From positions 31,464,587-31,528,586 of the forward strand of contig OZ029916.1 in NCBI GenBank assembly GCA_964023275.1: a DNA stretch of 64,000 nucleotides. Direction: 5' to 3'. The notes beneath the pieces are model-generated. The model saw nothing but the letters and a program-made list of their open reading frames with translations, was not told the DNA's origin and did not search any database. Positions 831-32,799 of this stretch are shown piece by piece. A program made the position numbers and the translations under genes. The DNA is from Norana najaformis. Taxonomy: Eukaryota > Annelida > Clitellata > Crassiclitellata > Hormogastridae. Within the stretch, counting starts at the first letter, position 1. Each line of letters opens with the position of its first letter.

Positions 831-966
831 CTGGACATTCCTTGACACACAACGTCCCATAGGTGAACTTGGCTTTTGGATTTGGAACCCACTTGAAGTC
901 CTGATACTTAAACTCCGGTGGACACATTCCAACGCATTCACCCTCGTCCGCAAAGTTCTTGCACGC
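831..966 (-). CDS. EGFR-family receptor, furin-like cysteine-rich exon (human exon 7 equivalent)
   Basis: Minus-strand exon of 136 bp, the most 3' receptor exon in the window. The acceptor AG lies at 967-968 and the donor GTGACG at 825-830. It begins in phase 0 and ends in phase 1 after a Cys-Pro pair. The translation starts ACKNF, has GECVGMCPP near the middle and FTYGTLCVKECP near the end. This is the cysteine spacing of the end of the EGFR furin-like domain (Cys-Pro-Pro, about 25 residues, Gly-x-x-Cys-Val-Lys-x-Cys-Pro). It joins in frame to the exon at 1490-1608. The donor is not the strongest consensus but the phase fits. The opposite-strand ORF at 808-993 is a shadow. The domain forms disulphide modules of the extracellular region, outside the cell membrane. 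Confidence 0.9.
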
Positions 967-1067
967 CTAGTAGAACATAAATGTGTCCAATGATTGATTA
1001 AGTCCAATTACAGCATCTCTTAATTATTTAGTACTCTTCAATGGTCAACAGGTATATGCATATACAT

Positions 1068-1185
1068 ACAGACAGACGGGCAGACAGACAGACAGACAAA
1101 CAGACAAACAGGCAGATAGACAGGCAGACAGACAGATAAGCAGGCAGACAGACGACAGGAAACAGAAAGACACACAGACAGCAGG
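1068..1185. repeat. (GACA)n-type degenerate microsatellite
   Basis: Runs of CAGACAGA with interspersed GGCA and GATA variants between two receptor exons. The minus-strand ORF across it is Cys/Leu/Ser/Val-rich low complexity and is not a gene. Confidence 0.8.
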
Positions 1186-1489
1186 CAGACTGGTAAAACA
1201 CCTACCCTATAACCCAGAGTGCACAGGTTTAAGCCTCTCCTTAAGGCTGTCATTGTGTAGGAAGTCTGAGTCCATGGTTCTGAACCATTGGCACTGCCAT
1301 TTTTGAAACTCCGAGTGTACAATTTTTACAGGGCTCATATTCCCTCCCTACTTACAAGACATCAAGACCTTTATAATTCAACTTCTGGACAAATCTTCTG
1401 ACTTGACCCAACTCTAGTGATGACCTATGTGTAGCACTTCAGATAGCACTTTAAAACTGACTTAATTACAATTACAAAGGAAGTCTTAC

Positions 1490-1608
1490 AAAGCAGTTGT
1501 TCTTGTAGGGTCCATAGCATCCACCCGCACATTCCGGATGGCAGCATTCATTCGGTTGGACACCAAAGCATCGTCCATCACACTGCTTGCTGCAGATGAC
1601 CTTTGTCA
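1490..1608 (-). CDS. EGFR-family receptor, furin-like cysteine-rich exon (human exon 6 equivalent)
   Basis: Minus-strand exon of 119 bp. The acceptor AG is at 1609-1610 and the donor GTAAGA at 1484-1489. It completes a Leu codon split after the first base (phase 1) and ends in phase 0. The translation reads LTKVICSKQC, then CFGVQPNECCHPEC and GGCYGPYKNNCF. The double Cys (ECCHPEC) and the C-x3-C-x-G-x-C pattern are diagnostic of the first furin-like domain of EGFR/ErbB receptors. By memory its length equals human EGFR exon 6 and both boundary phases match. An insulin-receptor-type furin domain is the main alternative, but the LTKxIC and ECCHxxC strings favour ErbB. Confidence 0.93.
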
Positions 1609-1619
1609 CTAGTCAACAG

Positions 1620-29302: not shown

Positions 29303-29551
29303 CAGTGCATTTTTTAAGAACGCTCCGGAACGGCGTTCCGGCACCTTTTTTCGGCTAATAAAAAATAATGTAGTTTTTAATAAAAGAATTGTATTCCTAA
29401 GTTATTTTAATTATGCAATATAATGTAACTTATTTTACTTCAATTTCAGTGTTTACAACTTTACACTGCTTTCTGTGTTTATTGATGATAAAAATAATGA
29501 AATTTTAGCACAAAATTACATAATTGTTTAGCTTCTAGAAAAAAAGCGCTG
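29303..29551. mobile_element. hAT-type MITE, copy 1 (249 bp)
   Basis: The ends are CAGTGCATTTTTT and (right end reversed) CAGCGCTTTTTTT. A perfect 8-bp target duplication CCTAAATG lies at 29295-29302 and 29552-29559. The 8-bp duplication and CAG...CTG ends are hAT hallmarks. Inside is a 17-bp palindrome CCGGAACGCCGTTCCGG. A second copy lies at 50302-50541 in the opposite orientation. Confidence 0.9.
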
Positions 29552-30227
29552 CCTAAATGTGACTTTAAGTAAGCATTAGTTTAGTTAACATCATTTAATA
29601 CCATGAATCTACACAATTTTTGGATGTGGTAATGTGAGGGTAACAAAATTGTAAGCTTGGGACACTATTGGGCAGACGCTTGCTACTTTGTCGTCAGCTC
29701 CGTATCGCCAGCAGACATGTCGGGTATTCTCGAAAGAGCTACCTGGCAATCCTGTACGCATAGTAACTCCAGTAGAACAATGCTGAAGCATAACGATGTG
29801 ACCAATAAAGCCCTTTAAGCCCTTGTTGTACAGTGTTCCAGCCCTTCAGTTTTCAGGAGATGAGTCGGATGGTAACGGATGTAATCGCTAACTAATTAAT
29901 GCTTCCATTGACCGCGGTCTTGAGCTGAAAGGATCACTGTTCAGCTGAAGCACAAGAACCGTAACCGAAACTATATACCAGGTAACCTTCCATACAAGTT
30001 GCAAGCAGTGGCGGCTCCAGGATTGCTTGCGTGGGGGAGAGCAAGGGCATTTCCAGAGGACTCCATATTCTGGCAGTCCACCATGCACGGATCTGGTCTG
30101 AGGGGCGCCGACATATAACCACGAGGGGCGAATCGTCTCTACGCTTTCATCTAGAACCGCTACTGGTTTCAAGGTTCTAATAACAAACGTCAACCAAAGA
30201 ATAAAACAGAAGACTGGGGCTACTCAC

Positions 30228-30368
30228 AGGGTCTCTGGTAGTCCTGGGAATTGGTGTTTTTGTAGATGACCTCTGTCCCTTCGCCAGTCAGAATGTCCTT
30301 CCAGTCAATCGTGTTATCAAAACACAGCAGATTGTTGTTGAAGAAATACACATTTCCAGCCATTATCT
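30228..30368 (-). CDS. EGFR-family receptor, end of L1 domain (human exon 4 equivalent)
   Basis: Minus-strand exon of 141 bp. The acceptor AG is at 30369-30370 and the donor GTGAGT at 30222-30227. It starts by completing a Glu codon split G|AG with the exon at 32413-32799, and ends in a Cys codon split T|GT (both phase 1). The translation begins EIMAGNVYFFNNNLLCF and includes IDWKDIL. This matches the final turn of the ErbB L1 beta-helix (E-I-x-x-G-x-V-x-F-x-N-N-x-x-L-C ... I-x-W-x-D-I). L1 is part of the ligand-binding ectodomain. The next exon in the transcript lies 20.7 kb away at 9500, across the inserted retrotransposon. Confidence 0.94.
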
Positions 30369-30379
30369 CTGCAAAATTA

Positions 30380-32412
30380 ATAGATATAATATCAATGCTA
30401 AAACCGACGACGACGAGACGATGATGATGATGATGATGCCGATGATAATGATGTTAGCAGCTCATATATCTTTTGTTCCTGAGGGATTACACTTGCCTTG
30501 GGTAGTAATAGTAATAACAGTAATAATAATATTATTAACAACAACAAAAGCAACAACTGGTCATTAACTGGTCATTAACAACTGTTTTCAAATCCTGAAG
30601 GATCCCTTTTTATTTAGCTGTTTTAAGTCTTGAGGGATCTTTTCTATCTCAGAATAATCATAGTATTTAATAATAATCATCTAGGCACTTAAATGCCATC
30701 ATTTTCTGGAGCATATCTGAGAAGCCGGACATCAGCAAAGATTAGCCGCTGCAGTACAAGAGGTAAAGGTAACAGTTTTACATGTGTGATACAGACATTT
30801 GAATCATGATCTTTCAGCTGAAGTGCAGACATGACCACAGCAATCCTAAAATGCAAAACCTTTTTATCCTCACTCTCCTCCCACCTTGCGTTTGGAACCA
30901 TTTACCAATCCCAAAAGGATGCAGCGCTGACTGATCAGTTGGCTTATATTCCACAAACTGTCATTCATTCAAGCGCTAACTGGGCGGGATCTGCTCTGCT
31001 TAACTTCACCGTGTTTGCCATTATAGTATCCACCATTACCTGTTTACTTTTTTATTTCCATGTGAGTGACCTATTAAAAATAGATCGGGCAAAAGCCGAT
31101 TTAAACTTCATCTTGAACATTTATAATAAGCAACAGGCAACCCGTCCTTCTCCAACAAAGACAGCAGCAACACAATCACATAATGGGGTCGTCACACTGT
31201 CAAAGAAGTTCTTGCCACAAAATGGCTGCCCCCACGCTAATTACTAGGGGACATTATTAGGGGACGTTTTCCCCTCTTCCATAGGGCTCGACGCCTCGGT
31301 GGCCTGTGATATAACACCGTCATTTGGCAGCCTATTCTAGGCGTCCGAAAATAGCCGGCAACAACAAAAACACGTCGGTCGGCTTGGAGGAAAACCCAGA
31401 CTATCAATCGGAGCTAATAAAAGCGGCGAAAAACGCAACGAACCATCATCCATTGGCCATTTCGCTAACAAGAATACAGTCCGACAAGAATGTCCATAAT
31501 CAAGGATATCTCGAGCACGTGTCATTTCCGTGGGCGAACTAAATAATTATAGCTGTCTCTCAAGGTTGTTTATCGCACATCAGTAAAGTTTACGAAGAAA
31601 CATAGAAAGTCTTAATTCTGTTATCTATAGAAATCATCAAAACGGCAAGATTGTTATAGTAGGATCTAGAAGCCCATATTTAGGTCTTCAGATCTTGACT
31701 AAAAACTCATCTCTTCCTGGACTTATTTCATCTGTAGGCTGTTTCCGTGTCTCATTGGATTCCCTTCTTGGCTTTCGACTGGGCTCACACTGGAATTTGG
31801 CTTGCACAACAGTGTCGCTTAGTAGTGTCTATCGACTGATACTTTGAGAGTTAGAACAGTAGCGCTGTAGAAGTTCTCAGATTAGATCACGTTTTTATAA
31901 CGTACCGCAAGCAATCAATGTCCTCCTGGAAAGTGCTATACTGAATAACTAGTTTACCTGCTTTTATTTGAAGCCCATGTAGGATTGGCCTAAATGACAA
32001 CCAACTCTAGGCCTAAGCCTAATCAATGCTAATGCAAAAACTTGGAATCACTGGCCCACAGCTTCAACAGCATGCTATCAAACATTCAACTGTAATTACA
32101 AATTCTTCATTTCTTAACTATGAAAATTCCAAGTTTGGAATCCTACAGCTTCAAAAGCAGCGTTGTTATTATAATCATAAAAGTAATCACAGATTCTCCA
32201 TTAGCTATCTACGAAAAACCGCAGGTCAAGAGAAAAGAAAATACTAGTCTGATAAGCACAGCAACTGTGACCAAAAATGTCACGCATGGTTGCAAACACA
32301 CGCAGTTACTGGCGACAACGATAGTACCAGCTGTGGCTGTCAAATTGTCCTTTCAGGAGAGCACTCACTGTCGTCGCCTGTCGCCGCGATAACGCAGAAT
32401 TCGATTACTTAC
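30380..32412. other. Receptor intron between the two L1 exons
   Basis: No gene was recognised. It contains a GAT-rich patch near 30410-30455, an AAT/CAA-rich patch near 30500-30560, and short ORFs (30831-31247, 31324-31542) without recognisable domains. Confidence 0.4.
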
Positions 32413-32799
32413 CGTGTAGCGAAGTCAGTCGCAATTCCTTGAGTCCAACAGTTTCCGACTTTGGTTTGTGGTTGTTCGCAACGAAGAGACTGTAGCTGAG
32501 CTGCTGACTGCTCAATTTGCTGTCCTCTGTCATCACGAAGAGAGATCTGCCTCGAATGATTCGCAGGTTGGTCAGATGGATGTAGCTGAAGTGGTTTCCG
32601 ATCAGAAGCACGTAACCGGACACTTCCTGAATGTCCTCGAGGAAGGACATGTCATAGTCGTCGTCCTCGTCGAGGAATGCGATCACGAGATTCCCGTTGA
32701 CGCAGGTACAGTTGGTGTACTGCGTTCGGTACATCATGTAGCGATCTCGCGGCGATCCTCCGTGATCGTGCGACACCCCGGACGTCGATCCACGACAAA
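32413..32799 (-). CDS. EGFR-family receptor, L1 ligand-binding domain exon (human exons 2+3 equivalent)
   Basis: Minus-strand exon of 387 bp, the most 5' receptor exon seen. The acceptor AG is at 32800-32801 and the donor GTAAGT at 32407-32412. It opens by completing a Val codon split after the first base, then CRGS. It ends in phase 1 after LTSLH. Key strings are NCTCVNGNLVI, DMSFLEDIQEVSGYVLLIGN, LTNLRIIRGRSLF, YSLFVANN and GLKELRL. These are the leucine-rich strands of the receptor L domain, and the IQEV-GYVL string is typical of ErbB. NCT is a possible N-glycosylation site. The product is an extracellular growth-factor-binding domain of a membrane tyrosine kinase receptor. The signal-peptide exon was not found. 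The plus ORF at 32468-32803 is a shadow. Confidence 0.96.

What the first reader, a model, noticed from the sequence alone, without database searches (positions are those of the whole stretch)
831..32799. EGFR/ErbB gene across 32 kb with intron phases matching vertebrate EGFR
Five minus-strand exons join in one frame. The codons split at the junctions are Val G|TT, Glu G|AG, Cys T|GT, Leu T|TG, a phase-0 junction, and a phase-1 end after Cys-Pro. As I recall human EGFR (exon ends at coding positions 88, 424, 559, 628, 747 and 889), each position and phase is the same. This is deep intron conservation and gives high confidence in the gene identity although the kinase part is out of view.
Basis: partly seen in the sequence, partly recalled or inferred. 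Interest (0 to 1): 0.75.

Follow-up and report, generated by a model that had tools for sequence, protein, structure and literature searches.

The report
Annelid EGFR gene, front-half exons
The window holds the first half of the outside part of an ordinary growth-factor receptor gene (EGFR/ErbB) from a segmented worm, cut by introns at almost the same places as in humans, and it is one of about thirteen such genes in that worm's genome.

Summary
Five minus-strand exons (32799-32413, 30368-30228, 9500-9423, 1608-1490, 966-831) have AG/GT borders and join into one open frame of 861 nt / 287 aa. The product is an ErbB ectodomain, domain I plus most of domain II: of the 60 PDB matches shown, 59 are named ErbB/EGFR and one only 'receptor protein-tyrosine kinase'. 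It covers the residues that EGFRvIII lacks. In the held genome the gene continues past the left end of the window with a second L domain, second Cys-rich region and an ErbB kinase. The host is an annelid, probably earthworm-like, with 13 ErbB kinase genes. Eisenia andrei was already reported with 12 EGFR copies, so the expansion is not new. Most junctions are shared by the seven genes examined. One human intron (c.240, recalled) is missing here but kept at that codon and phase in one paralogue on C1, the only mildly new point. The 20.7-kb intron holds a 12.5-kb LTR retrotransposon with identical LTRs. Verdict: a real, well-read, ordinary gene of a known expanded family.

The parts
32413..32799 (-). 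Exon A (human exons 2+3 fused): VCRG...TSLH plus first base of the Glu codon; L1 domain
   Evidence: AG|TT ... G|GTAAGT; Recep_L_domain
30228..30368 (-). Exon B (human exon 4): G|AG Glu ... T of Cys
   Evidence: TTTTGCAG ... GTGAGT
9423..9500 (-). Exon C (human exon 5): T|GT Cys ... first base of Leu; start of the Cys-rich region
   Evidence: CTGTTGCAG ... GTAAGT
1490..1608 (-). Exon D (human exon 6): T|TG Leu ... CF, phase-0 end
   Evidence: TTGACTAG ... GTAAGA; ORFs P0004 and P0005 of other sources seem to carry this exon alone (translations only)
831..966 (-). Exon E (human exon 7): AC...KECP plus one base, phase-1 end; includes the dimerisation-arm stretch
   Evidence: CTACTAG ... GTGACG
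9501..30227 (-). 20,727-nt intron between exons B and C
9830..22330 (+). LTR retrotransposon (Ty3/Gypsy order) inside that intron, antisense to the gene
   Evidence: two identical 2,222-nt LTRs (9830-12051, 20109-22330), CATT on both sides, gag/protease ORF then RT-RNaseH-integrase ORF

Best explanation
This is the first half of the extracellular region of a functional ErbB (EGF-receptor) gene of an annelid, one of 13 ErbB kinase genes in that genome. The protein would work as other ErbB receptors do: domains I and III bind an EGF-type ligand, domain II pairs two receptors, and the intracellular tyrosine kinase signals. Sequence, domain order, kinase motifs and exon borders are shown here; ligand binding, dimerisation and signalling are inferred from the family. 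The exon borders agree with those of human EGFR because most of these introns were already in the bilaterian ancestor of the gene. The worm paralogues arose by copying DNA, introns included.
For: Exons and frame; PDB and Pfam matches; continuation with L2, second Cys-rich region and kinase and the kinase's PDB match to ErbB chains, gapless over 245 residues in the alignments shown; outer borders equal EGFRvIII; shared junctions in seven paralogues and the main kinase exon's borders in six more; exon borders of relatives elsewhere suggested by database ORFs P0003, P0004, P0005; 13 kinase-exon matches E<=2.1e-34, then a gap to 8.6e-10.
Against: No RNA evidence. Signal-peptide exon 1 was not found; the best candidate (ATG 32991, last base 32856) would leave an intron of only 56 nt, and none of the five other genes scanned has a candidate within 1.6 kb of its exon A. 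The donor of exon D scores poorly on a recalled donor matrix (-0.1, against 2.7 to 6.3 for the other four). Human inner exon ends are recalled. P0002, from another source, reads straight through the A/B junction, so that intron is not universal unless P0002 comes from spliced RNA. In the kinase one human intron is absent and one extra is present. The two trees are mostly unresolved and have no non-ErbB root.
Confidence: 0.94

Rival explanations
1. An ErbB pseudogene, or a locus broken by the 12.5-kb retrotransposon.
For: A large, young LTR element lies in the intron between exons B and C; a genome with 13 copies could hold dead ones (the C6:25.2M fragment has a stop and no ErbB kinase match on C6).
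Against: The five window exons and the kinase exons read here are open with AG/GT borders; VAVK, HRDLAARN and DFG are intact; the element is antisense and within an intron. Exons between the ectodomain and the kinase were seen only as homologous ORFs, not modelled.
Confidence: 0.04
2. The exon borders agree because introns were inserted at favoured sites independently, not because they are old.
For: The fused human 19/20 and the extra intron in the kinase show that gain or loss does happen (human positions recalled).
Against: Six borders in the ectodomain and five in the kinase agree in codon and phase (human positions recalled except the two outer ectodomain ones); seven paralogues share most of them.
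Confidence: 0.03
3. A member of another L-domain receptor family (insulin-receptor type).
For: Insulin receptors also carry L domains and a furin-like region (recalled); two further L-domain loci in the genome may be of that type (C4:28.28M and C7:0.42M; not tested further).
Against: The 60 of 119 ectodomain PDB matches shown are ErbB, 59 by name; the 60 of 2519 kinase matches shown are all named ErbB. Matches not shown were not seen.
Confidence: 0.01

Closest known systems
Human EGFR/ERBB1-4 (ErbB receptor tyrosine kinases)
   Same: Domain order, kinase motifs, outer exon borders equal to the EGFRvIII exons 2-7 block
   Different: 861 nt here against 801 in human exons 2-7; human exon 2/3 intron absent here; kinase exons 19/20 fused and one extra intron after ...AARNVL (human inner positions recalled)
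Eisenia andrei EGFR expansion (PMC7253469, abstract and passages seen)
   Same: Earthworm with 12 EGFR copies; here 13 ErbB kinase genes in an annelid
   Different: The passages seen treat copy number and expression in regeneration; they do not treat intron positions
EGFR survey of Metazoa (PMC4914847; abstract, first of six parts, passages and Table 1 seen)
   Same: Reports independent EGFR expansions, including clitellate annelids (leech 6)
   Different: Highest count in that table is 8 (Macrostomum lignano); 13 here

Membership tests
ErbB/EGFR receptor tyrosine kinases | L1 (receptor L) domain followed by furin-like Cys-rich domain | tested here: met
   PF01030 2.2e-21, PF00757 7.8e-18
ErbB/EGFR receptor tyrosine kinases | Second L domain and second Cys-rich region | tested here: met
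   PF01030 at C4:31460748-31460882 on the same strand; Cys-rich ORFs shared with the paralogues
ErbB/EGFR receptor tyrosine kinases | ErbB-type tyrosine kinase with Lys, HRD and DFG | tested here: met
   VAVK, HRDLAARN, DFG; the 60 PDB chains shown (of 2519 matched) are EGFR, ERBB4 or ERBB2
ErbB/EGFR receptor tyrosine kinases | Single transmembrane helix | not tested
   the exon between ectodomain and kinase was not modelled
ErbB/EGFR receptor tyrosine kinases | Signal peptide | tested here: inconclusive
   one weak candidate at 32991-32856
ErbB/EGFR receptor tyrosine kinases | Groups with ErbB in a rooted kinase tree | tested here: inconclusive
   13 worm kinases against human EGFR and ERBB4 only; no non-ErbB outgroup
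Ty3/Gypsy LTR retrotransposon (intron element) | LTRs, target-site duplication, gag, protease, RT-RNaseH-integrase in that order | tested here: met
Ty3/Gypsy LTR retrotransposon (intron element) | tRNA primer-binding site after the 5' LTR | tested here: inconclusive
   one search shows TGGTACCAGAAGTGGG a few bases after the LTR; the tRNA-Leu reading is recalled

The most novel reading that the evidence does not exclude
The intron at the human c.240 position is ancestral to bilaterian ErbB genes. In this annelid it survives in only one of the 12 genes whose L1 exon was found (C1:7.4M; ...DMSFLK|gtgagt, then ttgcag|DIQEV, phase 0). Its loss in the other 11 would then mark them as descendants of one intron-less copy, giving a natural root for the annelid ErbB expansion that the sequence trees do not resolve.
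Probability: 0.45. Interest if true: 0.4.

Novelty: new member of a known kind. Interest (0 to 1): 0.3.

Why it matters
It is a clean case of exon borders kept since the split of worms and vertebrates, in a gene whose human form is a major cancer target. The genome around it holds 13 ErbB kinase genes in an animal group studied for regeneration, and one rare intron difference might order their duplications. None of this changes what is known about how the receptor works.

Tried and rejected
Searched the 33-64 kb part for exon 1 and for other genes: no convincing signal exon (a stricter first scan, found none). I scanned 30 ORFs outside the LTR element with Pfam (10 each; one search lists 342 ORFs of 60 aa or more in the whole window, so this is a part). 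They gave RVT_1 at 39002-39874 (2.1e-32), a below-cut-off RVT_1 at 51043-51543 and a below-cut-off match (Sey1_3HB) at 38612-38998; the other 27 gave nothing, among them the ORF that contains exon C. No tRNA by ARAGORN and no Rfam match at gathering score. The protein database gave nothing for exons B+C and one Mya arenaria relative for D+E.

Paper searches for EGFR intron positions in invertebrates or human exon lengths showed no title or abstract start that announces them; two searches returned no paper. I saw listings only, so a map inside one of those papers is not excluded. Of the 2006 ErbB evolution paper (PMC1618406) I saw passages only; those give no intron map.

A Notch-count control for genome-wide duplication and a copy count of the LTR did not complete (genome search busy). 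Trees on 95 and 121 columns were too short to order the paralogues.
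Full report
WHAT IS IN THE WINDOW. On the minus strand five exons lie at 32799-32413, 30368-30228, 9500-9423, 1608-1490 and 966-831. Every one has AG before it and GT after it. Joined, they give 861 nt and an open frame of 287 aa; the junction phases are 1, 1, 1, 0, 1. Introns between them are 2044, 20727, 7814 and 523 nt. The coordinates and phases in the finding are exact. The codon at the left border of the first exon is seen only as ..TT, because exon 1 was not found.

IDENTITY. phmmer against the PDB gives 119 distinct sequences at E<=0.001, of which 60 are shown: 59 named ErbB/EGFR/HER2 and one named only 'receptor protein-tyrosine kinase', which scores like ERBB2. 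The best are ERBB3 2.5e-68, EGFR 1.6e-67, ERBB4 1.6e-67; a further chain named EGFR, 3ltf, has 1.1e-65. Pfam gives Recep_L_domain, Furin-like and GF_recep_IV. The protein database gives five relatives, one full-length at 54% identity. The scores do not single out human EGFR among the vertebrate ErbBs, so 'ErbB family' is the correct label.

THE REST OF THE GENE. The window is C4:31464587-31528586 of a held 608,420,607-base, 17-contig genome. I fetched 30 kb beyond its left end. The next exon begins AG|AC CAC CTG ATC ACG, phase 1, about 0.4 kb past the edge. Further ORFs conserved in the paralogues encode the second L domain, more Cys-rich modules, and the kinase exons at C4:31453803-31449833. 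The kinase (245 aa, exons joined) spans human EGFR precursor residues 706-950, E 2.7e-111 for the full-length chain, and the EGFR and ERBB4 alignments printed have no gap. It keeps VAVK, HRDLAARN and DFG. I did not model the whole transcript; the transmembrane exon and the cytoplasmic tail were not worked out.

INTRON POSITIONS. Our residues 1-287 align with human EGFR precursor 30-296 (7syd_A). EGFRvIII, a deletion of exons 2-7, removes 801 bp and residues 6-273 and creates a Gly at the fusion (passages of PMC6257566). With a 24-residue signal peptide (recalled) these are precursor residues 30-297, so both outer borders agree in residue and phase. The inner human ends (c.424, 559, 628, 747) are recalled; by my count on a recalled human sequence they fall in mature residues E118, C163, L186 and after L225, which are the residues split here. 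A fifth inner human end, c.240 (recalled; between K56 and T57), has no counterpart in this gene. In the kinase, human ends after residue 728, after 823 and after 875, and within residues 901 and 950 (recalled, set against the residue numbers) are all present. The human 761/762 border is absent, and there is one extra phase-1 intron after ...AARNVL.

RELATIVES. Database ORFs of other sources, apparently called on unspliced contigs, suggest the same borders; only translations are seen. P0003 enters at VCRG and leaves after TSLR in what looks like phase 1; P0004 and P0005 carry exon D between the same two borders. Against this, P0002 runs through the A/B junction without a break, so that intron is not universal unless P0002 comes from spliced RNA. 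In seven worm genes fetched I compared borders by eye. End of exon A, start of B, start and end of C, end of D, start and end of E: 7 of 7. Start of D: 5 of 7 delineated. End of B: delineated in 2 of 7. Start of A: 5 of 7 at the same codon, one with the acceptor 6 nt upstream in the same phase, one not seen. Kinase borders from the end of K18 to the end of K22: 7 of 7; K23 seen in 6 of 7 (the last lies beyond the fetched DNA). The borders of the main kinase exon are the same in the six other genes.

HOW MANY ErbB GENES. With the 95-aa kinase exon, 36 places match; 13 of them at E 9.1e-58 to 2.1e-34 (63-100% identity, no stops), the next at 8.6e-10. The 13 lie on C1 (3), C3 (3), C4 (2), C5, C7, C8, C9 and C13. 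Twelve of the 13 have an L1 exon on the same strand within about 40 kb; for C1:19.79M none was found. C6:25.2M has an L1-like piece with a stop, and no ErbB kinase match lies on C6. In an unrooted tree the 13 kinase exons and the two human ones (EGFR, ERBB4) fall on opposite sides of a branch with support 100/99; the order among the 13 is mostly open, with C7:13.1M nearest to the window gene (88/92 on the kinase exon; 97/93 on L1). Two of the seven genes fetched (C3:6.5M, C9:23.5M) have HCD where HRD is usual.

WHICH ANIMAL, AND WHAT IS KNOWN. The erythrocruorin-linker family, which I recall as annelid-specific, has 29 matches (best 8.1e-32, many of them weak). Hedgehog N-domain matches (11) fall at five loci, so duplication is probably not limited to ErbB. 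Eisenia andrei has been reported to carry 12 EGFR copies, eight of them changing in regeneration (abstract and passages). A 2016 survey lists 1 EGFR in 14 of its 30 bilaterian species, 6 in a leech, 4 in human and at most 8 (Table 1, my count). A 13-gene set in an earthworm-like annelid therefore repeats a known expansion. That this is an earthworm is my inference.

THE ONE MILDLY NEW POINT. In the C1:7.4M paralogue the L1 exon is split. One half ends DMSFLK|gtgagt at C1:7468735, the other begins ttgcag|GATATCCAAGAG (DIQE), phase 0. This is the codon border that I recall for human c.240. Eleven other genes run through it unbroken. The plainest reading is an ancestral intron kept once and lost in the rest; the trees neither confirm nor exclude a single loss. 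No search here asked specifically whether this has been published.

THE ELEMENT IN THE LARGE INTRON. Positions 9830-22330 are a plus-strand LTR retrotransposon: two 2,222-nt LTRs identical at every base, CATT on both sides, a gag/protease ORF (gag 8.7e-07, aspartyl protease 4.9e-08, a zinc knuckle just under its cut-off) and a second ORF in the -1 frame with RT, RNase H and integrase. No XXXYYYZ slippery heptamer was found around the ORF overlap. No env was seen: between 18736 and 20108 the longest ORF listed on either strand is 74 aa. Identical LTRs mean a recent insertion; I have no rate with which to date it. It is antisense to the receptor gene and within the intron.

CONCLUSION. The finding is correct, and the gene is ordinary: one of 13 ErbB genes in an annelid, with the old exon borders of its family.

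Noticed in passing
window 9830-22330 (+): 12.5-kb Ty3/Gypsy-type LTR retrotransposon with 100% identical 2,222-nt LTRs and open gag-protease and pol ORFs. Genome copy number was asked but not answered.
   Followed up: partly
L037 and L039 (C1:7455834 and C1:7468735): ErbB paralogue with a phase-0 intron at FLK|DIQ, the recalled human c.240 position, absent in 11 other paralogues.
   Followed up: partly
L013-L015 (C3:6.507M) and L023-L026 (C9:23.549M): Two ErbB paralogues have HCDLAARN in place of HRDLAARN in the catalytic loop, Asp kept.
   Followed up: no
G000 C6:25198655-25198936 (-): ErbB L1-like piece with an in-frame TAG and no ErbB kinase match on C6: possible pseudogene fragment.
   Followed up: no
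G000 C6, C10, C7, C11, C1: Hedgehog N-domain matches at five loci, where I recall one as usual in invertebrates: duplication beyond ErbB.
   Followed up: no
window 39002-39874 (+), 51043-51543 (-), about 33220-33640 (-): Remains of retrotransposons: RVT_1 2.1e-32, RVT_1 below cut-off, and a stretch that reads like the end of a LINE reverse transcriptase (by eye; the ORFs tested there gave no Pfam match).
   Followed up: partly
window 8850-9378: Repeat of 126-nt spacing (three 203-nt copies, 97-100% alike) beside exon C.
   Followed up: no
window 32991-32856 (-): Weak candidate signal-peptide exon with phase-1 donor 56 nt before exon A; no similarly placed candidate in the five other genes scanned.
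   Followed up: partly
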